A stretch of DNA of 64,000 nt, from the NCBI RefSeq assembly GCF_014905095.1, contig NZ_CP041165.1, forward strand, positions 1,674,001-1,738,000. Reading direction: 5' to 3'. Origin of the DNA: Sulfurimonas marina (GTDB taxonomy: Bacteria > Campylobacterota > Campylobacteria > Campylobacterales > Sulfurimonadaceae). The notes under the pieces are model-generated. The model was not told the origin of the DNA, searched no databases, and was given only the letters and a program-made list of their open reading frames with translations. Position numbers and translations under genes: made by a program. Below, one piece after another: positions 31,634-42,885 of this stretch. The first letter of the stretch is position 1, and each line of letters starts with the position of its first letter.

Positions 31634-32009
31634 GGGGCTGACCTGGTTTCGACGGGATTTGGTAGCTTTTAACTGCATGTCGGACTGAGCACTTCCGTTA
31701 CGCGGCTCATCTGCGAATAAACGCAAACAATACAAATTATCGCCCAGCTTTAGCAGTAGCTTAAGTTTTTAACCCCTCGCAAGAGGCGGGCTGCTTCACC
31801 TGTTGACTCTAGATAGGCAGGATTCGAAGTATAACCCTTATGTAGATATATCTTGGGTCTGTCTCAGCTCAAGAAGAACCTCCGAGGCTCGTCTTGTGTA
31901 GCTTTGCAAGTTGTGTGAAGCAGGATTAAATTAAACAACTTCTCTAAGCATGTAGACGTTAGGAGTAGCTGAGTTTCGGACTGCGGTTCGATTCCGCACA
32001 GCTCCACCA
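31634..32009 (+). ncRNA. ssrA: Transfer-messenger RNA
   Basis: Rescues stalled ribosomes. The 5' end GGGGCTGACCTGGTTTCGACGGG and the 3' end GGTTCGATTCCGCACAGCTCCACCA form the tRNA-like part. The tag frame starts with GCA at 31723 and reads ANNTNYRPALAVA, ending with TAA at 31762-31764, close to tags known in Sulfurimonas-type bacteria. One-piece (not permuted) form. Its last bases serve as the attachment site of the following island, which restores the 3' end on integration. Confidence 0.97.
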
Positions 32010-32010
32010 A
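31991..32010 (+). repeat. Left attachment repeat of the island (inside ssrA 3' end)
   Basis: ATTCCGCACAGCTCCACCAA, the last 19 bases of tmRNA plus one, is repeated exactly at 42866-42885. The flanking bases differ on both sides, so 20 bases is the full identity block. Position at the 3' end of ssrA next to an integrase is classic for P4-type elements. Confidence 0.92.
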
Positions 32011-32131
32011 CAAAAATTCTCATATATTCAAAAAACATTCAAAAAACCCATAAATATCGATACTTAAAACATTTTTCAATTTCCATAGTTATCTATACTT
32101 CTCTTTACTTCTCTGAAAAATGAGAGTATTA

Positions 32132-32180
32132 TTGTGTGTAGAGAATAAATTCTACTCTCTTTTAATTGGAGTTACACACA
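32132..32180. promoter_or_regulatory. Candidate integrase arm-type sites, left end
   Basis: TTGTGTGTA at 32132-32140 and the inverse GTTACACACA at 32171-32180, the latter ending at the integrase start codon. The same motif occurs in pairs at the other end of the island (42799-42819). Repeated short motifs at both ends are what arm-binding domains of P4-type integrases recognise; one covering the start codon would also allow autoregulation. Inference from repetition only. Confidence 0.4.
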
Positions 32181-33421
32181 TGATAAGAGCAGAAAATAAA
32201 CTTAATGATAAAGCGGTCAAATCAGCAAAGCCTGAAAATGCTACTTATAGTATTTCAGATGGTAAAGGTTTAACTTTACAAGTGCATCCCAATGGATCAA
32301 AGCTATGGCGTTTTCGTTATAGGATAGATGGAAAACAAAAAATGCTTTCTATGGGAAAGTATCCTGATGTTAGTTTAGCTGATGCACGTAGAAAGACACT
32401 TGAGGCTCGAACTATTGTAGCCGAGGGAAATGATCCTTCTCAAGTACGAAAGGACGTTAAACATCAAAAGAAAGCTATTAAAGAAGCTATAGAAAGAAAA
32501 ACTACACACTCTTTTGAATTTGTTGCCAATGAAATTCTAAACTCTCGTTTTGAGAGAGGAGAGATTACTGAAGTACATTACAAACGTACCTATAGAGCTT
32601 TTGAAAATGATGTTTACCCTTTTATTGGTAGTTTAGAAGTAGCAGAAATCACACCAAACCAGATTATGGATATTGTGGAACGGGTAGAAGAACGAGGAGC
32701 ACATGATAGTGCATATAAACTTTTTTATGCAATTAGTAAGATCTACAAAACTATCATAGCTAGAAGAAAATATGATGTCGAATTTTCTCCTACAGCATCG
32801 ATCAGTATCGGTGAACTTATAGGTGCTAAAACAAAAAAACACTATCCAACAATTACAGATCGTAAAGGTATCAAAGGTTTACTTTTAGCTATTGAGTCAT
32901 ATCAAGGTGATTACTCTACAAAAATGGCTTTACAAGTATTGCCTCATGTTTTCCTACGTTCATCAAACATTCGTCATGCTGAGTGGAATGAAATCGACTT
33001 TAACGATCGTTTATGGCGTATTCCAGCTTCCAAGATGAAAACCAAAGAAGAGTTTTTAATTCCACTATCAGATCAAGTATTCACGCTTCTTAAAGAGATA
33101 CACACATTTACAGGTCAAGAGCAATATGTTTTTCCGTCATATCGTTACAAAACTGCCCCGCTTTCAGATAACACTTTAATTGGTGCATTTCGTCGTATGG
33201 GCTACAGTAAAGAGGAATTTGTACCTCATAGTTTCCGTGCAATGTTTTCAACCATAGCACATGAGCAAGGAACTTTTAAACATGAAGTAATTGAAAAACA
33301 ATTAGCTCATAGTGTAGGTAACTCAGTTTCTCAAGCTTACAACCGTTCAGAATACTTACAAGATCGTAAGGAACTTATGCAGTGGTGGAGCGACTATCTT
33401 GAGGAGGTGAAAAATGGATAA
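32180..33421 (+). CDS. int: P4-type tyrosine site-specific integrase
   Basis: Inserts and excises the island at ssrA. The 413 residues have the DUF4102 arm-binding domain (5-95: LNDKAVKSAKPENATYSISD, LRW-like KLWRFRYRIDGK), a core-binding domain (110-215) and the catalytic domain with Arg260, Lys near 287, His350-x-x-Arg353, His377 and the nucleophile Tyr387 (QAYNRSEY). All catalytic residues are present, so it should be active. Start ATG 32180 gives a family-typical amino terminus and has TGGAG upstream; a longer frame from 32120 looks spurious. Overlaps the next gene by eight bases. Confidence 0.95.
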   Translation: MIRAENKLNDKAVKSAKPENATYSISDGKGLTLQVHPNGSKLWRFRYRIDGKQKMLSMGKYPDVSLADARRKTLEARTIVAEGNDPSQVRKDVKHQKKAIKEAIERKTTHSFEFVANEILNSRFERGEITEVHYKRTYRAFENDVYPFIGSLEVAEITPNQIMDIVERVEERGAHDSAYKLFYAISKIYKTIIARRKYDVEFSPTASISIGELIGAKTKKHYPTITDRKGIKGLLLAIESYQGDYSTKMALQVLPHVFLRSSNIRHAEWNEIDFNDRLWRIPASKMKTKEEFLIPLSDQVFTLLKEIHTFTGQEQYVFPSYRYKTAPLSDNTLIGAFRRMGYSKEEFVPHSFRAMFSTIAHEQGTFKHEVIEKQLAHSVGNSVSQAYNRSEYLQDRKELMQWWSDYLEEVKNG

Positions 33422-33890
33422 GGATTATATCAATAACTTTCAAGGTTCACCTGATTATGACCATATGAGTTTAGATGAATTTTTAACATTTCATAATGTT
33501 CCTGAATATCTAAACGAATATATGACAGACAAAAATTGTAAAAAATTGTCTACTCTATTTTTTGTTTCATCCATGATTTCTAACCATATAGCACATATTG
33601 CTATCGGGAACTATAGAGTAATTCATGATAAGGAGCAATTCAAGACTCCATATATAAATGCCCTCCAGACACTTAGAGAATTTAATAATTATTACGATGA
33701 AGATATACTGCTTGCATTGGAAAAAATAGAAGACATAATTCACTATAAAGCAATCTCTCTTAATAAACATAATGTACAAAATAAAAATAAATGGTTATCT
33801 GAACTTATAAATGCTGGATATACGAAAACTAAAGCTAAACAAATCATTATAGAATTGACTGATTATCATAAAAAAAATCTACAAGCATAG
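33414..33890 (+). CDS. Island protein of unknown function
   Basis: 158 residues, mainly helical, acidic first half (DYDHMSLDEFLTFHNVPEYLNEY), no motif recognised, no signal or membrane segment. It overlaps the integrase gene by eight bases with an AGGAGG-like site inside the integrase end, so it is made together with integrase and could be a directionality or regulatory factor. No homologue known to me. Confidence 0.55.
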   Translation: MDKDYINNFQGSPDYDHMSLDEFLTFHNVPEYLNEYMTDKNCKKLSTLFFVSSMISNHIAHIAIGNYRVIHDKEQFKTPYINALQTLREFNNYYDEDILLALEKIEDIIHYKAISLNKHNVQNKNKWLSELINAGYTKTKAKQIIIELTDYHKKNLQA

Positions 33891-33896
33891 ATCATA

Positions 33897-33934
33897 GAAT
33901 TCATCTTTCCATTAAATTTATGGAAAATAAATTC
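33897..33934 (+). terminator. Hairpin followed by T-run downstream of the integrase unit
   Basis: Arms GAATT/AATTC and TTTCCAT/ATGGAAA (33906-33912 and 33920-33926) form a long interrupted hairpin; 18 bases further a short AGCT..AGCT stem runs into eight Ts (33936-33954). It likely ends the integrase transcript before alpA. Confidence 0.45.
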
Positions 33935-33979
33935 AGCTATTAGAGCTTTTTTTTGCTTTAATTTCCTTATAAAAAATAT

Positions 33980-33999
33980 CTATAGTTCTCTATAGTTCT
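33980..33999 (+). repeat. Tandem 10-bp repeat before alpA
   Basis: CTATAGTTCT occurs twice in direct succession, ending just before the AAGGAG ribosome site of alpA. A likely operator for a small regulator, possibly AlpA itself. Similar CATAGTTA fragments occur near 32085 and 34271. Confidence 0.35.
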
Positions 34000-34011
34000 A
34001 AGGAGTTAAAC

Positions 34012-34224
34012 ATGGCAGACAGACTATTAAGATTGCCAGACGTACAAGAAAAGCTGGGAAATATGAGTATACCAGTAATTTATCGTTATATGGAACAAGG
34101 CATACTTCCCCGTCCCATTAAATTATCCACACGTATGGCAGTATGGAAAGAGTCATGGCTAGATGCCTTTATTGATTCTTTAGATAGTGGTCAAGAGTTA
34201 AAAAAGAACTTTGATGGACAATAG
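34012..34224 (+). CDS. AlpA-family transcriptional regulator
   Basis: 70 residues with a MerR-like winged HTH: LLRLPDVQEKLGNMSIPVIYRYMEQGILPRPIKLSTRMAVWKESWLDAFI, the AlpA signature. Such proteins switch integrase/excision genes in P4-type elements. AAGGAG precedes the ATG. A typical partner of the integrase in satellites. Confidence 0.85.
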   Translation: MADRLLRLPDVQEKLGNMSIPVIYRYMEQGILPRPIKLSTRMAVWKESWLDAFIDSLDSGQELKKNFDGQ

Positions 34225-34298
34225 AAGAACAATAATAAACTTATACAAAGAGTTCTAAATGATCTATTTCCATAGTTACACACATTTTTATACTCAAT

Positions 34299-34405
34299 CT
34301 GATATTTGCTTGAGCCCTGAATTTTCATCTATAATTCGGCTTCATACTCCCCTACCTCAATTTAAGCCTCAAAATCCTTTTCCTCAGGGTTCACTCAAAT
34401 ATCAG
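34299..34405. repeat. Pair of 22-bp inverted repeats upstream of the replication gene
   Basis: The 22 bases at 34299-34320 (starting CTGATATTTG, ending CCCTGA) match the reverse complement of 34384-34405 at 19 of 22 positions; the spacer is 63 bases and contains a TATAAT. A GTTACACACA motif lies just before at 34275-34284. The pair may be an operator for the promoter between the arms or part of a replication origin. This non-coding stretch (34225-34445) holds no other feature I can support. Confidence 0.5.
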
Positions 34406-34445
34406 CAAAATAGTATAAATCTATGTGTCTTAAGGGAGTCCTTTC

Positions 34446-35201
34446 ATGGGTGAACGAAATGGTTATAAATATACAAAAATACCAATGAAAGCCTTTAGAA
34501 AATTTCTTACAAAACCCTACTCTGATAGTGATGCATTTGTAGATTTTATGGCTGACTTTCAAACTGAGCAAGTGCGTTCAATCAATAGTTATAAATCAAA
34601 ATGGGGATGGGAAAGCAGATCTAAAGTACACAGAAGACTTCAAGAATTTAAGTATGAGGCTGAACAATTCAAAAACTCATGGAATTCTGAAACACTAAAT
34701 GAAACACTAAATGAAACACTTATATCCCCTAAAATAAGTATCAAATCAAGTGTAAGTGAAACACCTTTTGAAACACCAAATGAAACACATGAGAATAAAC
34801 CCTTAGAGAAAAAACTAAAAAGAATAACCCCTAGGGACTCTAAATCATATAAAAGCGATACAGTGTTACTTAAAGGAAATCGAGAACATATACCTGATGG
34901 AACTACAGTCCTAGAATCTCCAAAAGATGTACTCGGTCATCCAACTAGATCAGATGGAATTTTATTTGATGAAGTAAAAATAGATAGAGTCATCAAGAAA
35001 GATGGAAAATTAAAACGTCATCTACATTTTCATAACGGAAAAGATCATATCTATCTATTAAACATTGAAGATGCGAAGACAGCATACGACTATTACTATC
35101 ATCTTCAAAAAAAACAACAGCCTATCAATCTTTTATCAACAGTATCAAACTTAGCTAACAACAAACGAATAGACATCAAGGCAAGTAATGATACGTTTTA
35201 G
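34446..35201 (+). CDS. Probable replication-type DNA-binding protein with iterons in its gene
   Basis: 251 residues. The first 75 resemble the winged-helix start of phage/plasmid replication proteins (GYKYTKIPMKAFRKFL, SINSYKSKWGWESRSKVHRRLQEF); the middle has repeated NETL/SETP tetrapeptides (about 82-115), then a basic linker, and the C-terminal part (about 170-225) is a short mixed alpha/beta segment. The DNA coding the repeats carries six identical GAAACAC boxes (see separate entry). This arrangement recalls lambda O, where origin iterons lie inside the initiator gene. Replication function is inference; no helicase motif is present. Confidence 0.5.
   Translation: MGERNGYKYTKIPMKAFRKFLTKPYSDSDAFVDFMADFQTEQVRSINSYKSKWGWESRSKVHRRLQEFKYEAEQFKNSWNSETLNETLNETLISPKISIKSSVSETPFETPNETHENKPLEKKLKRITPRDSKSYKSDTVLLKGNREHIPDGTTVLESPKDVLGHPTRSDGILFDEVKIDRVIKKDGKLKRHLHFHNGKDHIYLLNIEDAKTAYDYYYHLQKKQQPINLLSTVSNLANNKRIDIKASNDTF
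34689..34788 (+). repeat. Six GAAACAC iterons, 12-bp period, inside the replication-type gene
   Basis: GAAACAC occurs at 34689, 34701, 34713 and again at 34758, 34770, 34782: two blocks of three, each with exact 12-base spacing, 45 bases apart. Around each core, TAAAT/CAAAT-type AT bases recur. The period is a multiple of three, so the protein also repeats (ETL, ETP), but identical codons in all six copies suggest selection at DNA level. Candidate origin iterons. Confidence 0.6.
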
Positions 35202-35245
35202 TCAAAAAATTGCTTCATGGACAAATATAGGCTAGGAGTTAAGTC

Positions 35246-35446
35246 ATGTTAACAATAAAGAATCAAGATTTTATAGACACTTATGTTGCAAGCAGAATAA
35301 CCAACTTATCCCAAGAGAGGATAAGACAGTTAGTCAGAGAGCGTAAGTTGTCGTCAGTTTGCCCAGTCTCAGGGGGAAAAATCTATGTCTGCAAGAAAGA
35401 TGTAGAAGTGATGATGACTATAAAAGAGAAAGACGAAAATCAATAA
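35246..35446 (+). CDS. Excisionase-like helix-turn-helix protein
   Basis: 66 residues with an HTH-17/excisionase-type fold: SRITNLSQERIRQLVRERKLSSVCPVSGGKIYVCKKDVE. Small, basic and typical of Xis or phage regulators. The next gene starts directly at its stop (TAAATG), so they are one transcription unit. Confidence 0.65.
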   Translation: MLTIKNQDFIDTYVASRITNLSQERIRQLVRERKLSSVCPVSGGKIYVCKKDVEVMMTIKEKDENQ

Positions 35447-35833
35447 ATGAAATTGTCTATTGGATTGTCTATCGAGACTAAAATGTCTATTGAAAACAAA
35501 TCTAATGAATTAATCGGTGAACACGAAGTTTCAAAGTGTTTTTATGTTGCTTGCATAGACAAAAATAGACAACAAAAAAGGAGGTTTTTTTTGAAAGTTA
35601 AAAAGAGAAATATTGATAGCTTTATTCCAGTAGATTACAATACAAGAGTAATTAATGAAGAATTAGAACCGATTGACATAAAAGACCTTGAATATGCAAT
35701 ACCCATCATTTATTTGGATTTAGAACCTATCTACTATGAAAGTTGTGAACTTAGAGCAATTCCAATGCTCTCTTTAGAGCTTGAAGAAGTAATAATAGAG
35801 CTAAAAACTATTCAGGAGGTACTGCATGAATAA
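35447..35833 (+). CDS. Island protein of unknown function
   Basis: 128 residues, no recognised domain. The amino-terminal half is mixed; the C-terminal half is very acidic with repeated xLDLEPIYYE/LSLELEEV strands. Its ATG abuts the previous stop. The region around 35575 (AAAAAAGGAGG followed by TTGAAAGTT) would also allow an internal start at 35591. Confidence 0.45.
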   Translation: MKLSIGLSIETKMSIENKSNELIGEHEVSKCFYVACIDKNRQQKRRFFLKVKKRNIDSFIPVDYNTRVINEELEPIDIKDLEYAIPIIYLDLEPIYYESCELRAIPMLSLELEEVIIELKTIQEVLHE

Positions 35834-35886
35834 CTAAACTAAAAATCAATATTCATCTACAAATTAAAAAGACATAGGAGACAAAA

Positions 35887-36414
35887 ATGTACGAACTAGA
35901 TTATAGTTATATTGAACATAGACCGCAGAATGCTATGGAAGCAATTGAAGCGAATACTAGACAGCAGATACAAGAAAAATATAATAAAGTAGATATTGAA
36001 ACACTCTACGAAGCGTATAGAGACTTAGTATCTATACTTGAAAGACAAATCTCTCATTTGAAACAAAAACAAGAGAATGTAAATAAATCTCTAAAAGCGT
36101 ATAAAACTGCTAAGAATAAATGGACTAAATTCCTACCTCAATTAGAAGCTTTACTTCAAGAACATAATATGGATATTCCTATCAGTATTCAGAATAAACA
36201 TCTTAACGGGAATACTATGATTGAAAAACTAAATAATTTAGAACCATCAGGTAGCATAATCATTGATGGAAGCATATTTCCCCGTAAACTTAATCAAAGT
36301 GAGCTAGACAATCCTAAAGAGGATATTTTTATTACACAAACTAAACTCACTGAACTCCAAAGCCTTATTGATAAAAAAGTAGAAATTTATCATAAATTAC
36401 TAGGGAATCAGTAG
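35887..36414 (+). CDS. Coiled-coil island protein, unknown function
   Basis: 175 residues with a central coiled coil (about 45-85, YEAYRDLVSILERQISHLKQKQENVNKSLK) and a second helix at the end. No catalytic motif, no signal peptide. ATAGGAGACAAAA before the ATG is a strong ribosome site. Fifteen bases before terS, so it may take part in packaging or capsid interference of a helper phage; that is only positional inference. Confidence 0.5.
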   Translation: MYELDYSYIEHRPQNAMEAIEANTRQQIQEKYNKVDIETLYEAYRDLVSILERQISHLKQKQENVNKSLKAYKTAKNKWTKFLPQLEALLQEHNMDIPISIQNKHLNGNTMIEKLNNLEPSGSIIIDGSIFPRKLNQSELDNPKEDIFITQTKLTELQSLIDKKVEIYHKLLGNQ

Positions 36415-36429
36415 GTTAAGAGTAGGACT

Positions 36430-36822
36430 ATGAATAAAGCACTTACGAAAATGCAACAAGATTTTGTAGAAGTATATGTAGTCACACGTAATGCCAAAAA
36501 ATCAGCGTTACAAGCTGGATACAGTCCTATTTTTGCAGAAAAAAAATCTTATAGCTTGTTAAATGACTCTAAAATTAAAACTGCTATAAAGGAAGCTGAA
36601 AAATACTACTTCTCTGAAAAATTTAAAAAGCTAAGTGTCCTAGCTACAGAGGAGCTGGAAAATATCTTAATCAATGGGGATAATAAAGAAAAGCTTCGAG
36701 CATCGGAAATTATTTTTAAATCTTCAGGACTTACCAACATGCTCATCACTCCAGAAGAAGATGATAAGCCAATTAAAATTACGGTTACATTACCACCTGA
36801 ACTAGAGGGTGATATAGGTTAA
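36430..36822 (+). CDS. Phage terminase small subunit
   Basis: DNA-recognition subunit of a packaging terminase. The 130 residues show the Terminase_2 pattern: LTKMQQDFVEVYVVTRNAKKSALQAGYSPIFAEKKSYSLLNDSKIKTAIKEAE, i.e. the DNA-binding HTH, then an oligomerisation helix and an acidic/beta tail (IKITVTLPPELEG). No large subunit follows. In satellites, a private small subunit redirects a helper phage's large subunit to package satellite DNA. Confidence 0.85.
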   Translation: MNKALTKMQQDFVEVYVVTRNAKKSALQAGYSPIFAEKKSYSLLNDSKIKTAIKEAEKYYFSEKFKKLSVLATEELENILINGDNKEKLRASEIIFKSSGLTNMLITPEEDDKPIKITVTLPPELEGDIG

Positions 36823-36833
36823 AAGGAGAAAAA

Positions 36834-37136
36834 ATGACAATAGTGACACATGATCCAATGATTTTTGGAATAATTGATGATGTTATCAATAACTTATCCA
36901 TTGCATCAGATCGACATGAAAATGACATGTTTGCAGGTGCTTACTTGATACTAGAAACTCTAAAAGACAAATATTCTTGTCTTATCGATGATGCAACTTA
37001 TCTAAGTGAATTTCTAGCTACATTAGAGCTAATTACAAGAGGCTTACAAGCTACTAATGAGATGATGGACAAAAATGTTATGCAAGCATGTACATCTTTA
37101 TTACGCGTTCAAGAATATATTAAAGAGGCTCTGTAA
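36834..37136 (+). CDS. Small helical island protein, unknown function
   Basis: 100 residues, all-helical and acidic (DPMIFGIIDDVINNLSIASDRHENDMFAGAYLILETLKDKY). No family recognised. AAAAGGAG lies before the ATG, 12 bases after terS. Last gene of the satellite core before the cargo block. Confidence 0.45.
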   Translation: MTIVTHDPMIFGIIDDVINNLSIASDRHENDMFAGAYLILETLKDKYSCLIDDATYLSEFLATLELITRGLQATNEMMDKNVMQACTSLLRVQEYIKEAL

Positions 37137-37290
37137 GCAAACATTGATTTTACTTATATCTATGTTTACATGTGATTTAATATCGTTAAATGATTAAATA
37201 AGAGATTGTAATATGGCTAGTAAACGAGAAACTTTAGAGGTAAAGTGAAAAAAGTAAAAAAAGATGAATGGGAATTAATCGAACTTCAAT

Positions 37291-38160
37291 TTGAACAATA
37301 AAAATAACATTCAAATAGACTTTTTATTATGGGAAAAAACAGCTAAAATATGGACAATGAAATATAATGACCTAAATTTAAAAGAATGGAAAAAGATTGA
37401 CATTAATACAGACAGTCTTTGGATAATTAATGAAAGAGATAAATCTGGTAAACATAAAAATATTTACCATGGCAATTTTGTACCACAGATACCGAATGAA
37501 TTAATTAGACGCTATACAAAAGAAAAAGAAACTATTTTAGAACCTTTTATGGGGAGTGGTACTACATTATTTGAATGTGAACGCCTTCATAGAAAATATA
37601 TTGGATTTGATATAAATCAAAATATGATTGACTATGTTCATAGTTCTATGAAAGATGGATTAACGACATATCCTGATTATTACATTGAGAATGCAAATTC
37701 ACTGAACAATAAACTTATAGAAAAACATATAAACTTAGCATCTCAACAGTTTCACCAAAGTGAAAAAGTTCAATTTGTCTTAATGCATCCTCCCTATATG
37801 GACATTGTAAAATTTACAGACAATCACAATGATTTATCGCAAATTGATGATGTTGAACTATTTCTAAAAAAATTTAAAAATATATGTACAAATTTTTTAC
37901 AATATTTAGAAAATGACAGATATTTTGCAGTTGTAATTGGCGATGTTTATAAAAATAGCGAAGTAATTCCTCTTGGGTTCTACTGTATGGATATGATACA
38001 AAAAAACTTTAATGTAAAACTAAAAGGAACTATTGTAAAAAACATTGAAGGTAATAGAGGCAAACAAGGAAGTGGTGGTATTTGGAGATATAGAGCTTTA
38101 AACAGTGATTACTATATTTTTAAGCATGAATATATTTTTGTTTTTAAAAAGGTTAAATGA
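37291..38160 (+). CDS. DNA N4/N6 methyltransferase (island cargo)
   Basis: SAM-dependent DNA amino-methyltransferase of about 289 residues. Motif I is EPFMGSGTTLFECERLHRKYIGFDIN (FMGSG at about 86-90) and motif IV is LMHPPYMDIVKF (HPPY at about 166-169), so SAM binding precedes the catalytic motif and Asp of DPPY is replaced by His. A target-recognition region is probably the C-terminal 80 residues. Start: TTG 37291 has a poor ribosome site; ATG 37357 (residue 23) is an alternative that leaves the motifs intact. It overlaps the next gene by four bases (ATGATGG), so it is co-translated with a nuclease, as in restriction-modification pairs. Confidence 0.8.
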   Translation: MNNKNNIQIDFLLWEKTAKIWTMKYNDLNLKEWKKIDINTDSLWIINERDKSGKHKNIYHGNFVPQIPNELIRRYTKEKETILEPFMGSGTTLFECERLHRKYIGFDINQNMIDYVHSSMKDGLTTYPDYYIENANSLNNKLIEKHINLASQQFHQSEKVQFVLMHPPYMDIVKFTDNHNDLSQIDDVELFLKKFKNICTNFLQYLENDRYFAVVIGDVYKNSEVIPLGFYCMDMIQKNFNVKLKGTIVKNIEGNRGKQGSGGIWRYRALNSDYYIFKHEYIFVFKKVK

Positions 38161-39290
38161 TGGCAACAGCGCACGTATTTATAGTAGATTACAATACATT
38201 TAAGTATCACTTAGAATATCTGTTTGCAGGGACAGGAGCAGGTAACAAGGTAATAGATTTTAACAATGTCAGCACTACAACTTTACATGCTCAAAGTGAA
38301 AATAATTTAGTTGGAATGATCGCTGACATAAATAGAATTAGAGTTAATGATTATGTTCTTTTTTATCTACAGCAGAATTATCAAATGGGAATCTATGAAG
38401 GTAAATTTTATGGAATTTTTAAAGTAATAGAGAGAAGAGGATTTATAGATAATAATGACTCCCAACAGTTCTTAAAGAATGAATTACAAAAATCTTTGAC
38501 TTTTAGAATTTTACTTCAAGCTGATGATGTATATGCTGATGGAGTTACAGAGTGGGAAGCTCTGGATGAAATATCGAGTATTCAATCTCCAAATCAAATG
38601 CTTTGGAGTTTAATTTATAGAAAACTGAAAGGTAATCGTGGAAATACAATGATTACTATTTATGAATTTGATAGGATAAAACAACTTATTCGCAATAAAA
38701 ATAATAGAAATGTATTAACTGGGAACTACTTTACTTTTAATACTCAATCTCAGAAAATTGAATCCTGTACTCAACAAAACAGATATACGGGTCGTCAAAG
38801 CAATATTAATCTTTTACCACGACTTATAAATAAATATTCAAGAAACCTACAATTTGAAATACATCTACAAGCTTATATACTACAAAACTTAGAAAATATA
38901 ACACCTTTTTCTAATGAACAAATTGAATGGATTGGGAATGAAGTATCTTGTGGTGTAGGAATGCAAAGAATTGACATTATGTTGTCTACAGTAAGAAATA
39001 CAAATAGAGTTTGTATTCCAATAGAGTTAAAATCCACAGAAGCTTACTTATCAATTACGACACAACTTCAAAGATATGTCGATTGGATTCAACAATACTA
39101 TTTACCTAATAGACCTTCAGATTTGGAACCAATGATTATATCAAGAAAAATTTCTAATAAAACAAGTCAAAATTATTTAAATCTAGTGGCTGAATTTAAT
39201 ACTTTCAATCGACGAAATAATTTACAACTCCGATATGTTGAATTTGACATTATTACAAATAATATTAACTTTGTTGAAGTTATATATTAA
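38157..39290 (+). CDS. EVE/PUA-like + NucS-like nuclease fusion (island cargo)
   Basis: 377 residues. The first 170 resemble an EVE/PUA-type domain (AHVFIVDYNTFKYHLEYLF, RVNDYVLFYLQQ, GIFKVIERRGFID, LTFRILLQADDV, VTEWEALDE), a fold that in known cases reads modified bases. The C-terminal half has the NucS/DUF91-type PD-(D/E)XK core: GMQRIDIMLS with Asp273, IPIELKS with Glu290 and Lys292, then the TTQLQRYVDWIQQYY helix with Gln303. So it should cut DNA selected by its amino-terminal reader, or act as the restriction partner of the overlapping methyltransferase. Fold assignments are from motifs, not from a search. Confidence 0.7.
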   Translation: MMATAHVFIVDYNTFKYHLEYLFAGTGAGNKVIDFNNVSTTTLHAQSENNLVGMIADINRIRVNDYVLFYLQQNYQMGIYEGKFYGIFKVIERRGFIDNNDSQQFLKNELQKSLTFRILLQADDVYADGVTEWEALDEISSIQSPNQMLWSLIYRKLKGNRGNTMITIYEFDRIKQLIRNKNNRNVLTGNYFTFNTQSQKIESCTQQNRYTGRQSNINLLPRLINKYSRNLQFEIHLQAYILQNLENITPFSNEQIEWIGNEVSCGVGMQRIDIMLSTVRNTNRVCIPIELKSTEAYLSITTQLQRYVDWIQQYYLPNRPSDLEPMIISRKISNKTSQNYLNLVAEFNTFNRRNNLQLRYVEFDIITNNINFVEVIY

Positions 39291-39310
39291 ATACAAGATG
39301 TGAAATAAAT

Positions 39311-39934
39311 ATGGATTTAGAAAGATTAGAAAAAGAATTAAAGAATAGGCTACCTTATGGTTATAGTTGGGGGAAAAAGCAAGATAATAGCTGGGACCAA
39401 CAAACAAATTTTATCTATAAAACTTACAGTGTTTCAAAACTTTTAGAAAAAACACAACACCTTAGTGAAGGTCTTAGAAATTATGCTTTAAACAGATGGT
39501 ATAACTATTGGAGTGCAATGGGTGTTGAAGATATTTTTTGTTCACATGAAAATGTCGAAGCAAATAAAAATATATATGACAAACTTATTGATTTTAGAAT
39601 AAATGATATTCCCTTTGATCATAAAACATCAATTTTTCCAAAAGGTTTTAATAAAGATATTGAATATGCACTTAACAACAAAAGAGAATTGATTCAATGG
39701 CTATATGACAATCAAAGCCAACAAGGACGAAAGCACTTGGAAAACCGTCTTTTTATTGTCCTATATGATAAAAATCATCAACACTGGAAAATGAAAGCAG
39801 AAATATCGCTATTAAAACAAGCAATTGAACAATATGTTCAAGATTTCAATATAAAGAATTTAGAAGTCTTCAACTTTGGAAATGGAGAAGTCTTGTCAGA
39901 TATTATTTGGATTCAAAATGAAGGAGTATTATGA
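39311..39934 (+). CDS. Putative PD-(D/E)XK nuclease-like protein (island cargo)
   Basis: 207 residues. The segment LIDFRINDIPFDHKTSIFPKGF gives Asp94 and a D103-H-K105 pair, the spacing of a PD-(D/E)XK active site, followed by NRLFIVLYDKNHQHWK (a core strand) and a helix. The first 90 residues are helical, with NRWYNYWSAMGVEDIFC. It lies 20 bases after the EVE/NucS gene and overlaps the next by four. It could be a restriction endonuclease or a subunit; no family name is certain. Confidence 0.55.
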   Translation: MDLERLEKELKNRLPYGYSWGKKQDNSWDQQTNFIYKTYSVSKLLEKTQHLSEGLRNYALNRWYNYWSAMGVEDIFCSHENVEANKNIYDKLIDFRINDIPFDHKTSIFPKGFNKDIEYALNNKRELIQWLYDNQSQQGRKHLENRLFIVLYDKNHQHWKMKAEISLLKQAIEQYVQDFNIKNLEVFNFGNGEVLSDIIWIQNEGVL

Positions 39935-41184
39935 TTGAAAAGTCAAAAGAAAATCAATTACTAAAAGCATATATTACAAAACACAATGATATGCAAGGTG
40001 TAATTAAAACTAATAGTGGACGCCATTGCTATCATATAAGATTTAAGTTGTCAGGCAGTTTAACAGACTACCAAAAATATTTTAAACCACTTAACATAAT
40101 GGTAAAAGAATCAGATCATAGCTGTTCATCAAAAAGTCCAACTTATATTTTGGAAAATACAGTTCAAATAGATTCTATCCCTAAAAACACTCAGTTATAT
40201 TGGGTTAATAATGAAGTTGAAAATTCCAAAACAGGAAGTACGTTATTCGCTACAAAAGATTTAAGCCCAGATAAATTAAACGTTACTGCTAAAACATATA
40301 CAATAGATGAATTAATAGCTGATGTAACAAAAAAAGTTCAATTAAAATATGATAAATGTGTCGCTACAGAGTTAATAAGACTTTTAAACCTTGCTTCTCA
40401 AAAAAAAGATATTATTAAAATTGATCCTATTTTAACATTTACAACCGAAGACTTAAAAGTTATATCGAAAGACTTTGGAGAGATTTTAGCTGCAATATGG
40501 ATTATGAAAAATTCAAATTTTAGTAAAGTAATATTTCCAAAGAATTCAAATGAAAAATTGATAGATTTTTATGCTGAAAAAGTTTCAATAAACTATCCTA
40601 TTTCTGTTAAATCAGGTAAAGGTGGTAAAGTTCTTCTTCAAAATCTTATAGATGCTTTAAACCGAAGAACAAGAAAGCATTCAAAAAAAATATCTGAAGA
40701 GCCTATATATCAGATTATTCAAATCGTAAATAAAAATAGTGCAAAGGAACAAATGGTTATAATACATCAATATTTACAGACGAAAATGATTGAAGATTTA
40801 GCTACAATTCTAAAAAAACCAATTGAACTTATTGACTTAGAATATATCAAAAATTGGAGTAATAGCAAAACTATTGAAGAACTTAAAGAATTATTATCTG
40901 ATTGGTGGAAAGAATATTCTCAACCTACAAAATTCAATATACAAGATCAAGAAAGATTAGTGATTTCTCCTTTAGGAGAGGCTATAAAATACACTCTTAA
41001 TAACGACCCTAAATTGAAAGAATCATTGAACTGTATAGCTAAGCAAGTGGCATTATTACAGGTGAATGTAGATATAAACACTAAAACCATGAGATTCCAA
41101 AAAAGTTTCTTTAAAAACGCAAAATTTGAATTTGGATGGCCTGGGTATTCATCAGGAAACAAACTTGGATTCAGAATGGTTTAA
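39931..41184 (+). CDS. Large putative restriction-nuclease-like protein (island cargo)
   Basis: 417 residues, not recognised as a named family. The centre looks like a nuclease core: KDFGEILAAIWIM (Glu184), KLIDFYAEK (Asp212), YPISVKSGKGGK (S225-V-K227). The acidic residue usual before Lys is Ser, a variant known in the Cfr10I/Bse634I group, where an acidic residue from elsewhere completes the site; Asp241 is a candidate. The first 140 residues (GVIKTNSGRHCYHIRFKLSG, KTGSTLFATKDLSPDKL) would be a separate recognition domain. Last gene of the four-gene operon. Inactive or structural roles are possible. Confidence 0.5.
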   Translation: MIEKSKENQLLKAYITKHNDMQGVIKTNSGRHCYHIRFKLSGSLTDYQKYFKPLNIMVKESDHSCSSKSPTYILENTVQIDSIPKNTQLYWVNNEVENSKTGSTLFATKDLSPDKLNVTAKTYTIDELIADVTKKVQLKYDKCVATELIRLLNLASQKKDIIKIDPILTFTTEDLKVISKDFGEILAAIWIMKNSNFSKVIFPKNSNEKLIDFYAEKVSINYPISVKSGKGGKVLLQNLIDALNRRTRKHSKKISEEPIYQIIQIVNKNSAKEQMVIIHQYLQTKMIEDLATILKKPIELIDLEYIKNWSNSKTIEELKELLSDWWKEYSQPTKFNIQDQERLVISPLGEAIKYTLNNDPKLKESLNCIAKQVALLQVNVDINTKTMRFQKSFFKNAKFEFGWPGYSSGNKLGFRMV

Positions 41185-41194
41185 AAAATAATTG

Positions 41195-41218
41195 TACAAA
41201 GTTAATAAAATATTTGTA
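41195..41218. promoter_or_regulatory. Possible controller-protein operator
   Basis: TACAAA at 41195-41200 and TTTGTA at 41213-41218 form an inverted repeat with a 12-base spacer, upstream of a TATAAT at 41237-41242 and the HTH gene. Such boxes before a small HTH gene that overlaps a methyltransferase resemble C-boxes of restriction-modification systems. Confidence 0.4.
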
Positions 41219-41242
41219 TTTCTAATTAAATAAAGGTATAAT

Positions 41243-41461
41243 TTGAATATTGATAAATTTAAAATTAAAGAACTGATGGCAAAAAAACAGATTAAAACAC
41301 AATCTGAATTAGCTGAATTATTGGGAATGTCTAAAAATCAATTATCTAATATTTTAAGCGATGATTTTGATCCAATAAAAAGTAATGTTAGAAAACTGTC
41401 TGATTTTTTTGAAGTTAGTCCTCTATCAATAATCAAAGATACTAAGGAAAACATAGAGTGA
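41243..41461 (+). CDS. Xre-type HTH regulator, controller-like
   Basis: 72 residues with a Cro/CI-type HTH: KTQSELAELLGMSKNQLSNILSDDFDPIKSNVRKLSDFFEVSPLSII. Overlaps the methyltransferase gene by four bases (GTGA), the common layout of controller genes. The listed start is TTG 41243, which lies directly after a TATAAT; if that is the -10 box, the transcript starts inside and ATG 41276 (MAKKQIKT) would be used, possibly leaderless. Confidence 0.75.
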   Translation: MNIDKFKIKELMAKKQIKTQSELAELLGMSKNQLSNILSDDFDPIKSNVRKLSDFFEVSPLSIIKDTKENIE

Positions 41462-42468
41462 ACTATATAGGATCTAAATTAAAATTATCTTCTTGGATAG
41501 AAGAAGAAGTAAAAAATGTTGTTGGGGACGATCTTAGTCAAAAAGTTTTTTGTGATTTATTTGCTGGCACAGGCATAGTAGGAAGAACTTTCAAAAACGA
41601 TGTTAAACAAGTAATTAGTAATGATATTGAAGATTATAGTTATATATTAAATAGGAATTATATACAAAATTCATCTACTCTTGAGCAAGCAGAAGAATAT
41701 ATTATTCAGTTAAATAACTTGCCTCTTATTGAAGATGGGTTTATATATAATAACTATTGTATGGGAAGTGGTAGTGAACGACAGTATTTTAGTGATTATA
41801 ATGGTAAAAAAATAGATACTATACGACTTCAAATAGAAAAGTGGAAGACTGATAAAAAAATAAATGAAAATATGTATTATTTTTTATTAGCTTCTTTACT
41901 TGAAAGTGCTGATAAGGTCGCAAATACTGCATCGGTATATGGAGCTTTTTTAAAAAAGTTAAAAAAGTCTGCCTTAAAAGAATTGGCACTTGAAAGTGCA
42001 AACTTTGATCTTTCTTCAAATAAGCATGTTGTTCATAAAGAAGATAGTAATACTTTAATTCAAAAAATTTCAGGGGATATATTATATTTAGATCCTCCAT
42101 ACAATCAAAGACAATACGGCGCAAACTATCACTTGTTAAATACAATAACAAAGTATGATAATTTTACACCAAAAGGTAAAACTGGAATGAGAGAATACTT
42201 CCGTTCTCAATATTGTAGTAAAAAAGATGTAGCAGAAAGTTTCAATGAACTTATAAAAAATGCAAATTTTAAATATATTTTTCTTAGTTACAATAATGAG
42301 GGTTTAATGAGTGAAGACACGACTCGTGAGATAATGGAAAATTATGGTGAGTATAAATTGATTAAAAAAGAATATCAACGATTTAAAGCTGATAAAACGG
42401 AAAATAGAAATCATAAAGCTAATAGTACTTTTGAATACTTACACGTACTAATTAAGAAAGAACTTTAA
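41458..42468 (+). CDS. D12-class (Dam-family) DNA adenine methyltransferase
   Basis: 336 residues with the D12 order: amino-terminal MNYIGSKLKLSSWI, motif I FCDLFAGTGIVG near 36, and motif IV LYLDPPYNQRQYGANYHLLNTI near 210, then the alpha-class C-terminus (KYIFLSYNNEGLMS). Expected product N6-methyladenine. The target-recognition insert is between motifs III and IV or just after. Start GTG 41458 inside the regulator end. No obvious separate nuclease follows; the nuclease-like genes just upstream or the HARE-HTH gene downstream may be functional partners. Confidence 0.85.
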   Translation: MNYIGSKLKLSSWIEEEVKNVVGDDLSQKVFCDLFAGTGIVGRTFKNDVKQVISNDIEDYSYILNRNYIQNSSTLEQAEEYIIQLNNLPLIEDGFIYNNYCMGSGSERQYFSDYNGKKIDTIRLQIEKWKTDKKINENMYYFLLASLLESADKVANTASVYGAFLKKLKKSALKELALESANFDLSSNKHVVHKEDSNTLIQKISGDILYLDPPYNQRQYGANYHLLNTITKYDNFTPKGKTGMREYFRSQYCSKKDVAESFNELIKNANFKYIFLSYNNEGLMSEDTTREIMENYGEYKLIKKEYQRFKADKTENRNHKANSTFEYLHVLIKKEL

Positions 42469-42523
42469 ACTATAAAAGTTTAACATGCTATAATTGAACA
42501 AAATTAATAATCAAAGGAATTCA

Positions 42524-42766
42524 ATGAAAGGTAGTTATACTAATTGGGATCTAATTGCTGATGTCTTTAAAAAAGAAAAAAGGCCCCTCGGTGTGAAAGA
42601 AATTTGGGATATAGCTGTTAAACTTGGTTTAGATAAGAAAACAAATAATTCAGGAAAAACTCCTTGGAACAGTTTACATAGCATGTTCAATTATAGAAAA
42701 AAAATTGGGAATGATGAGTATATTCAAGTAGGAAAAAAATGGTTACCAAAATCTTTAAAAATTTAA
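42524..42766 (+). CDS. HARE-HTH domain small protein
   Basis: 80 residues that match a HARE-HTH domain end to end: TNWDLIADVFKKEKRPLGVKEIWDIAVKLGL, GKTPWNSLHSMFNYRKKIGNDEYIQVGKKWLP. This domain occurs in restriction enzymes and chromatin proteins and has been predicted to link to modified DNA. Here it stands alone. Start ATG 42524 has AAAGGA five bases upstream; a TATAAT at about 42489 gives it its own promoter. Last gene of the island. Confidence 0.7.
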   Translation: MKGSYTNWDLIADVFKKEKRPLGVKEIWDIAVKLGLDKKTNNSGKTPWNSLHSMFNYRKKIGNDEYIQVGKKWLPKSLKI

Positions 42767-42798
42767 TTTTCCTTTATTAGACAATTAAACTTTATTAT

Positions 42799-42819
42799 TT
42801 GTGTGTAACATTGTGTGTA
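42799..42819 (+). promoter_or_regulatory. Candidate integrase arm-type sites, right end
   Basis: TTGTGTGTA at 42799-42807 and again at 42811-42819, the same motif as near the left end. 42800-42809 is the exact reverse complement of GTTACACACA at 32171-32180. Confidence 0.4.
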
Positions 42820-42865
42820 TATAAATATAAATACATACTTATACACCTGTTATAGATATTATTTA

Positions 42866-42885
42866 ATTCCGCACAGCTCCACCAA
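42866..42885 (+). repeat. Right attachment repeat of the island
   Basis: Exact 20-base copy of the tmRNA 3' end (see 31991-32010). The rest of the tmRNA is absent here, so it is an attachment-site scar and not a second ssrA. It marks the distal island border; chromosome resumes with the TraB/GumN gene. Confidence 0.92.

What the first reader, a model, noticed from the sequence alone, without database searches (positions are those of the whole stretch)
37291..41184. Four-gene operon: methyltransferase, EVE-like/NucS-like fusion, and two more nuclease-like proteins
Start/stop overlaps (38157-38160, 39931-39934) tie the genes together. A reader-type domain fused to a NucS-like core (Asp273, Glu290, Lys292) next to a methyltransferase with His in place of Asp in motif IV, plus two proteins with PD-(D/E)XK-like residues, is not a standard type I-IV layout I can name. 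It may be a multi-component restriction or modification-dependent defence system.
Basis: partly seen in the sequence, partly recalled or inferred. Interest (0 to 1): 0.86.

Follow-up and report, generated by a model that had tools for sequence, protein, structure and literature searches.

The report
CATG restriction locus with swappable nucleases
The genes form part of a bacterial DNA-cutting defence system in which one or two protective DNA-marking enzymes are kept while several unrelated DNA-cutting enzymes are swapped in and out; here three such candidates sit together on a small mobile element.

Summary
The four ORFs, their overlaps and the quoted residues are real, but three more genes follow: a C-like regulator, a D12 adenine methyltransferase (M2) and a HARE-HTH protein. 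All lie on a 10.9-kb integrated element flanked by a perfect 20-bp repeat of the tmRNA 3' end. Related loci show a Type II R-M system of the NlaIII/HpyI (CATG) kind: M2, often with the HPPY methyltransferase M1, has changing nuclease partners (IceA/NlaIII-type HNH, EVE-NucS, P3, P4, others). EVE-NucS is in one gene run with M2 in 12 of 12 assessable genome loci and the only recognised nuclease in 6; two viral contigs lack M2 in the stretch fetched. P3 pairs with M2 alone in one genome. Two species share the P3-HNH pair at about 96% DNA identity inside flanks near 74%, so nucleases move as cassettes. The EVE-NucS model matches EVE (Z 13.9) and EndoMS/NucS (Z 11.2). I conclude that EVE-NucS and P3 are alternative restriction enzymes blocked by M2 methylation, probably at CATG; P4 is a less certain third and M1's role is inferred. 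No activity has been measured. This is a new variant of Type II, not a new type.

The parts
37291..38160 (+). M1: N6/N4-type DNA methyltransferase, motif IV HPPY; likely true start ATG 37357
   Evidence: PF01555 1.9e-21; PADLOC Type II MTase 1.1e-84; relatives start at the MKYND equivalent; HPPY conserved
38157..39290 (+). P2: EVE domain (about residues 1-180) fused to a NucS/EndoMS-like PD-(D/E)XK nuclease (about residues 228-370); D273, E290, K292
   Evidence: profile hits to EVE structures (E 0.001) and, weakly, to NucS (E 0.24); AlphaFold2 pLDDT 85.9; EVE Z 13.9, EndoMS Z 11.2
39311..39934 (+). P3: PD-(D/E)XK-type restriction endonuclease candidate (E73, D94, D103-H-K105)
   Evidence: invariant residues; beside M2 with no other recognised nuclease in L019; homologous domain at the C-terminus of D12 methyltransferase proteins in L020 and L021
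39931..41184 (+). P4: candidate nuclease (E184, D212, S225-V-K227), otherwise unclassified
   Evidence: residues conserved in three homologues; reading of the strand order as PD-(D/E)XK-like is mine; the structure model failed
41243..41461 (+). C-like Cro/C1-type regulator
   Evidence: PF01381 3.3e-9; a homologous small gene lies just before M2 in L017, L018, L025, L058, L060 and L068
41458..42468 (+). M2: D12-class N6-adenine methyltransferase, DPPY; predicted CATG
   Evidence: PF02086 6.1e-55; PADLOC Type II MTase 2.7e-136; 55-73% identical to 18 compared M2 proteins of other loci
42494..42766 (+). HARE-HTH protein, 90 aa; accessory DNA-binding protein or remnant of a HARE-nuclease
   Evidence: PF05066 1.5e-9; 40% identity over about 47 residues to the HARE-type protein of L024
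32011..42885 (+). Integrated element that carries the operon: integrase 32120-33421, AlpA-like 34012-34224, small-terminase-like 36430-36822
   Evidence: 20-bp perfect direct repeat 31991-32010 / 42866-42885; tmRNA 31634-32009; Pfam
31991..32010 (+). left att repeat: last 19 bases of the tmRNA gene plus one base
42866..42885 (+). right att repeat

Best explanation
This is a Type II restriction-modification locus of the NlaIII/HpyI (CATG) kind whose nuclease genes are exchangeable. M2 methylates the adenine of CATG on both strands (specificity inferred from relatives). The nucleases cut unmethylated CATG in incoming DNA. Here there are three candidates: EVE-NucS (P2), P3 and, less surely, P4. 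P2 and P3 would each be a restriction enzyme in its own right, held off by the same methyl mark. In P2 the EVE domain would inspect the site and the NucS-like domain, probably as a dimer like EndoMS (recalled), would cut. C would delay the nucleases until M2 is made (recalled behaviour of C proteins). M1 probably methylates the same site on another substrate, such as single-stranded or entering DNA, as DpnA does beside DpnM (recalled; inferred only). The set rides on a phage-satellite-like element in the tmRNA gene. Shown: gene content, modelled folds of P2, conserved catalytic residues, recurrent pairing with M2, cassette transfer. Inferred: CATG cutting, blocking by methylation, independence of the nucleases, roles of M1, C and P4.
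For: EVE-NucS occurs in 13 of 397 genomes. M2 is in the same gene run in 12; the 13th (L059) lies at a contig end, and the EVE frame of L024 is split in two. In 6 of the 12 (L063, L105-L109; L105 is near a contig start) it is the only nuclease recognised by my seeds. All four full-length stand-alone P3 genes in 199 genomes lie with M2, L019 being P3+M2 without M1; two more P3-like domains are fused to D12 methyltransferases. The IceA protein of the same slot in L025 scores 2.9e-79 to PF05315. M2 of EVE-only or P3-only loci is 66-74% identical to the nearest M2 of an IceA-only locus. A C. jejuni HS:19 gene cluster has the order of L066 by annotation (MTase, hypothetical, zinc-ribbon protein, restriction endonuclease, putative MTase), and its D12 enzyme was assigned Cm6ATG from PacBio data and REBASE (PMC8743553, passages). 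PMC4687069 and PMC4658567 (passages) describe iceA1/nlaIII with hpyIM and a further methylase in C. jejuni ST-677. On an M2 tree of 26 counted rows the nuclease set changes at least 13 times, EVE-NucS 7 and IceA 8. P3 and HNHb are 96.7% and 95.6% identical in DNA between L017 and L018, M2 76.3%, two flanking genes 74.8% and 73.5%.
Against: No activity is measured. Two viral contigs lack M2 in the stretch fetched: L103 has EVE-NucS with M1 only, L104 a partial EVE-NucS with neither; two others (L056, L057) have M1 with no listed nuclease and no M2. A P3 homologue on a Priestia plasmid has no seed-family methyltransferase in the 12.4 kb fetched. M2 often lacks such partners: of 22 M2-positive genomes among 120 of the genus, 4 carry one of EVE-NucS, P3, P4, HNHa or HNHb beside it (several of the other loci lie near contig ends). 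The CATG frequency test was post hoc, is not corrected for 16 palindromes or kinship (p 0.004), and runs opposite to simple avoidance: M2-positive genomes are less CATG-poor. P4 has no usable model and a Ser in place of the usual acidic residue. EVE-PD(D/E)XK fusions in print are predicted to be modification-dependent (PMC7641849, section 9).
Confidence: 0.75

Rival explanations
1. EVE-NucS is a Type IV enzyme that cuts modified phage DNA, parked beside an ordinary CATG system, so the locus covers both unmodified and modified phages.
For: EVE-PD(D/E)XK fusions are predicted to be modification-dependent (PMC7641849 section 9); YTH m6A readers are among the fold matches of the EVE half; L103 and L104 lack M2 in the stretch fetched.
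Against: In 6 of 12 assessable genome loci EVE-NucS is the only recognised nuclease in the run with M2, which would leave the methyltransferase without an enzyme (orphan M2 genes do exist); an enzyme that reads m6A at CATG would attack its own host.
Confidence: 0.15
2. EVE-NucS, P3 and P4 are subunits of one cutting complex rather than separate enzymes.
For: Overlapping or closely spaced genes; P4 found in bacteria only near an EVE-NucS gene (2 of 2); small zinc-ribbon-like proteins sit before EVE-NucS in some loci.
Against: EVE-NucS and P3 each occur with M2 and no other recognised nuclease (L063, L105-L109; L019); a P4 homologue occurs in Phage C48C1 without annotated R-M genes around it.
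Confidence: 0.12
3. Only one nuclease is active; the others are leftovers of past cassette exchanges. This is compatible with the main scheme and only denies the stacking.
For: Broken pieces of M1 and M2 accompany a transferred cassette in L018; M2 is often without any listed nuclease.
Against: All three window ORFs have the length of their relatives and keep the conserved residues.
Confidence: 0.25

Closest known systems
NlaIII / HpyI (IceA1-hpyIM) CATG Type II R-M systems
   Same: D12 adenine methyltransferase; the same slot holds PF05315 (ICEA) nucleases in many relatives
   Different: In the window no IceA gene is present; EVE-NucS, P3 and P4 take its place, with M1 and a C-like gene added
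C. jejuni HS:19/ST-677 'cluster X' (PMC8743553; PMC4658567)
   Same: Gene order and annotation match L066: methyltransferase, hypothetical, zinc-ribbon, restriction endonuclease, putative methyltransferase; Cm6ATG seen by PacBio in HS:19
   Different: The 'hypothetical' protein there was not identified; I match it to EVE-NucS by position only, not by sequence
EVE-PD(D/E)XK proteins predicted to be Type IV (PMC7641849)
   Same: Domain architecture
   Different: Here it also occurs with a site methyltransferase as a minimal two-gene set, which points to methyl-blocked cutting
NucS/EndoMS
   Same: C-terminal nuclease fold (Z 11.2) and D...ExK residues
   Different: N-terminal half is EVE; context is R-M, not mismatch repair
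DpnII-type systems with two adenine methyltransferases (recalled)
   Same: A D12 enzyme plus a second methyltransferase of the N6_N4 kind; short matches of M1 to structures named DpnA
   Different: In M1 motif I precedes motif IV, and motif IV is HPPY; the site differs

Membership tests
Type II R-M of the NlaIII/HpyI (CATG) kind | D12 adenine methyltransferase of the M.HpyI type | tested here: met
   PF02086; 56-66% identical over the whole length to M2 of six IceA-only loci; no named M.HpyI or M.NlaIII sequence was compared
Type II R-M of the NlaIII/HpyI (CATG) kind | IceA/NlaIII-type HNH endonuclease | tested here: not met
   absent from the window operon; present in relatives. The window locus is related through its methyltransferase, not its nucleases, and is called a variant
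Type II R-M of the NlaIII/HpyI (CATG) kind | methylation and cutting at CATG | not testable with these tools
   needs methylome and cleavage assays; support is by relatives
EVE domain family | EVE fold | tested here: met
   Z 13.9 to PH1033 over 137 residues; profile E 0.001; the single window sequence stays below Pfam's cut-off
NucS/EndoMS nuclease domain | PD-(D/E)XK core with D...ExK | tested here: met
   Z 11.2; D273/E290/K292 in 15 of 15
NucS/EndoMS | NucS N-terminal DNA-binding domain and mismatch repair | tested here: not met
   N-terminal half is EVE; activity not testable here
Type IV modification-dependent enzymes | cuts only modified DNA; no cognate methyltransferase needed | tested here: inconclusive
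   12 of 12 assessable genome loci have M2; L103 and L104 do not in the stretch fetched
Phage satellite (PICI-like) | integrase, AlpA-type regulator, terminase small subunit, small size, att repeats, no virion genes | tested here: inconclusive
   integrase, AlpA, TerS-like gene and att repeats found; several element ORFs have no match, no primase was recognised, mobilisation not tested; criteria recalled

The most novel reading that the evidence does not exclude
A 'socket' R-M system: one conserved CATG methylation code (M2, often with M1) into which unrelated nucleases are plugged, alone or stacked. It would include an EVE-reader nuclease, the first known to me, whose reader licenses cutting of unmethylated DNA instead of modified DNA. 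Stacking two or three isoschizomers would guard against phage anti-restriction proteins aimed at one of them.
Probability: 0.4. Interest if true: 0.75.

Novelty: new variant of a known kind. Interest (0 to 1): 0.58.

Why it matters
It gives a testable function to an EVE-NucS family which, if the match by position holds, was noted only as a hypothetical protein in the C. jejuni cluster. It suggests that EVE, thought of as a sensor of modified bases, can serve in a methylation-blocked restriction enzyme. And it offers a natural experiment on how one methylation code is shared by unrelated nucleases, which bears on how R-M systems evolve and move on mobile elements.

Tried and rejected
Four-gene unit as such: rejected; P4 was found in only 2 of 397 genomes, and among the loci inspected the exact quartet was only here.

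Modification-dependent reading of EVE-NucS: kept as a rival, not chosen, because of the loci with EVE-NucS and M2 only.

P4 structure: AlphaFold2 with two sequences gave pLDDT 41.9, not used. A profile of three P4 sequences found nothing better than E 0.51 among solved structures. For P4 and its homologues the family libraries gave only matches below their curated cut-offs or none. P3 found no solved relative (none; nothing better than E 0.24). The viral structure library was not searched.

Weak P3 match in G078 (E 3.8e-4, inside an m5C methyltransferase frame): taken as chance. L001, the only hit of the genome-contig scan, holds an M2 gene and a 31-residue match to P2; it is on the M2 tree but left out of the change counts. 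Scans of viral contigs for P3 and P4, tblastn of plasmids for P2 and P4 and of phages for P2 and P3 found no relative; plasmids gave one P3, one IceA-type and fifteen M1 records, the M1 ones all under 60% identity.

M1 neighbourhoods: of the 49 genomes with M1 I looked at 32; the 17 not fetched have weaker matches. M1 rows down to about 32% identity were among those fetched.

CATG counts: in the window outside the element observed/expected is 86/165.5 = 0.52 (only CGCG is lower), in the element 30/31.0 = 0.97. Across the genus, stretches of at least 9 kb were used: 10 of 20 fetched without M2 (pooled 0.64) and 14 of 20 with M2 (0.87); Mann-Whitney p 0.004 for CATG, the smallest of 16 palindromes, uncorrected (GTAC 0.02 and GGCC 0.04 follow). 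One M2-positive stretch (L174) shows an odd 15% G+C and was not removed. I had no prior prediction of the direction; weak support at most. The first attempt stopped with an error after printing the loci; the counts are.

Literature: search listings turned up no report of EVE-NucS as a Type II enzyme or of several restriction enzymes sharing the CATG methyltransferase. I saw passages of PMC6191088, PMC10423294, PMC4687069, PMC4658567, PMC8743553 and PMC4081073, passages and section 9 of PMC7641849, and only the abstract's start of the others. Subscription papers and REBASE were not searchable, so this is no proof of novelty. PMC6191088 describes another CATG system with an unrelated-looking enzyme; its sequences were not compared.
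Full report
What is there. P2 matches EVE and NucS_C only weakly as a single sequence (E 0.023 and 0.015). A 15-member alignment reaches an EVE structure at E 0.001 and NucS at 0.24. The AlphaFold2 model (pLDDT 85.9) aligns residues 3-179 to EVE protein PH1033 (Z 13.9, 2.6 A over 137) and residues 228-364 to EndoMS (Z 11.2, 2.8 A over 111). M1 is an N6_N4-type methyltransferase with HPPY. P3 and P4 match no family above a curated cut-off in Pfam or NCBIfam, nothing in PADLOC, and nothing of known function in PHROGs, but each keeps PD-(D/E)XK-like residues in its aligned relatives: P3 E73, D94, D103-x-K105 (7 of 7); P4 E184, D212, SVK227 (3 of 3).

Directly after P4 come a Cro/C1-type regulator, a D12 adenine methyltransferase (M2) and a HARE-HTH protein, with C and M2 overlapping by four bases. 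The whole operon lies in an element of 10,875 bp bounded by a perfect 20-bp repeat of the tmRNA 3' end (31991-32010, 42866-42885), with an integrase, an AlpA-like protein and a small-terminase-like protein. It resembles a phage satellite; mobility was not tested.

Related loci. M1 relatives (E <= 1e-20) were found in 49 of 397 genomes of the phylum. I looked at the neighbourhood in 32 of these 49 (the window, L024, L025 and 29 stretches) and at further loci. ORFs were labelled by phmmer with ten, later seventeen, seeds. Between or beside M1 and M2 lie different nucleases: an IceA protein alone (L062, L067, L069-L072), EVE-NucS alone (L063), EVE-NucS with IceA (L023-L025, L060, L066), P3 with a second HNH protein, HNHb (L017, L018; HNHb scores 1.2e-37 to a PADLOC Type II enzyme), EVE-NucS with P4 (L058), HNHb with two other genes (L065, L068), HARE-like HTH proteins with HNH or nuclease-like parts (L073, L074, L077, L078, L080, L082; no M2 labelled in L073 and L080), or m5C-type genes (L075). 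Several of these loci have broken M1 or M2 frames, and the remote M1 rows (L085, L086) have none of these partners.

EVE-NucS anchored. A profile search of 397 genomes of the phylum found EVE-NucS in 13. M2 is in the gene run in 12, the 13th being at a contig end (L059); M1 is present in 8 of 13. Nuclease partners in the 12: none recognised in 6 (L063, L105-L109; L105 is near a contig start), IceA in 4 (L024, L025, L060, L066), P4 in 2 (window with P3, L058). L105 and L106 also have a small zinc-ribbon-like ORF before EVE-NucS. A further genome, G174, found, has M1, EVE-NucS, IceA and M2 (L023). Against this, two viral contigs hold EVE-NucS without M2 in the stretch fetched: L103 with M1 beside it, L104 a partial gene with neither.

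P3 and P4 anchored. P3 matched in 7 of 199 genomes: four full-length stand-alone genes, all with M2 (window, L017, L018, L019; L019 has no M1 label), two C-terminal domains of D12 methyltransferase fusions (L020, L021), and one weak match taken as chance. A Priestia plasmid has a P3 homologue with no seed-family methyltransferase in the 12.4 kb fetched. P4 occurs in 2 of 397 genomes and in one of 50,697 phage records, Phage C48C1, at 44% identity with no annotated R-M gene in the stretch.

Why CATG. The IceA protein of the slot (L025) scores 2.9e-79 to PF05315. In C. jejuni HS:19, cluster X has the gene order of L066 by annotation, and its D12 enzyme was assigned Cm6ATG from PacBio data and a REBASE query (PMC8743553, passages). 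C. jejuni ST-677 was described as holding iceA1/nlaIII, hpyIM and another methylase (PMC4687069; PMC4658567; passages). M.HpyI targets CATG as part of the iceA system (PMC10423294, passages). M2 enzymes with EVE-only or P3-only partners are 66-74% identical to the nearest M2 with an IceA-only partner, 61-68% in the stretch before motif IV that should hold target recognition (the placing is recalled). The HS:19 methylomes showed three motifs: one assigned to another gene, CATG, and a bipartite motif left unassigned there. So M1 has no assigned motif; a shared CATG site fits but is not proved.

Exchange. On a tree of 27 M2 proteins (9 of 24 inner branches starred, 10 open), with one row left out of the counts, the nuclease set needs at least 13 changes, EVE-NucS 7, IceA 8, P3 4. 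These rows came from searches with M1 and the nucleases, so they are not a random sample. Direct transfer is seen between L017 and L018 (two species, same flanking genes): P3 96.7% and HNHb 95.6% DNA identity, C 85.9%, M2 76.3%, flanking genes 74.8% and 73.5%. In the genus M2 is in 22 of 120 genomes (E <= 1e-60). The 18 further loci from 17 of these genomes show none of my nuclease families beside M2, though several lie near contig ends; so M2 is often an orphan or has other partners.

Mechanism. Because EVE-NucS and P3 each occur with M2 and no other recognised nuclease, each is best read as a restriction enzyme whose self-protection is M2's mark. This makes EVE a reader in a methyl-blocked enzyme, against the general prediction that EVE-nuclease fusions are modification-dependent (PMC7641849 section 9). 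P4 is placed as a third enzyme on weaker grounds. M1 as a second, perhaps single-strand, enzyme for the same site is analogy with DpnA (recalled).

Verdict. New variant of Type II R-M, not a new type. Interest 0.58: the EVE-NucS/D12 pairing and the stacking of three candidates under one methyltransferase would surprise a specialist and can be tested with three purified proteins and one methyltransferase.

Noticed in passing
window 31991-42885: A 10.9-kb element with integrase, AlpA-like and small-terminase-like genes sits in the tmRNA gene with perfect 20-bp att repeats; it looks like a phage satellite with R-M cargo.
   Followed up: partly
L110 5929-7230 (Phage C48C1): A P4 homologue (44% identity) in a 156-kb phage classed as Kyanoviridae, between an exonuclease gene and a phrog_455 gene; role unknown.
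   Followed up: partly
L020 5309-7513 and L021 5199-7400: A P3-like nuclease domain at the C-terminus of a D12 methyltransferase, an apparent single-chain R-M protein.
   Followed up: partly
L105 141-395, L106 4671-4901, L024 7711-7932, L066 5021-5242: Small zinc-ribbon-like proteins before EVE-NucS that match part of the HNHb nuclease; possibly a DNA-binding subunit.
   Followed up: no
L065 5478-7173 and L068 5280-7041: Two further genes (about 360 and 211-229 aa) between M1 and the HNHb nuclease, of unknown role.
   Followed up: no
L075 2417-5846: Between an M1 remnant and M2 lie two genes that read like m5C methyltransferases and a 477-aa protein, as if a foreign R-M system had been dropped into the site.
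   Followed up: no
L146 3510-6211 and L148 5028-7735: A 533-aa protein that reads like an adenine methyltransferase and a 366-368 aa protein beside M2 in two genus members.
   Followed up: no
window outside 32011-42885 versus inside: CATG is at 0.52 of expectation in the host part of the window but at 0.97 in the element; across the genus, M2-positive genomes are less CATG-poor.
   Followed up: partly
L174: This 18-kb stretch shows 15% G+C; it may hold masked letters.
   Followed up: no
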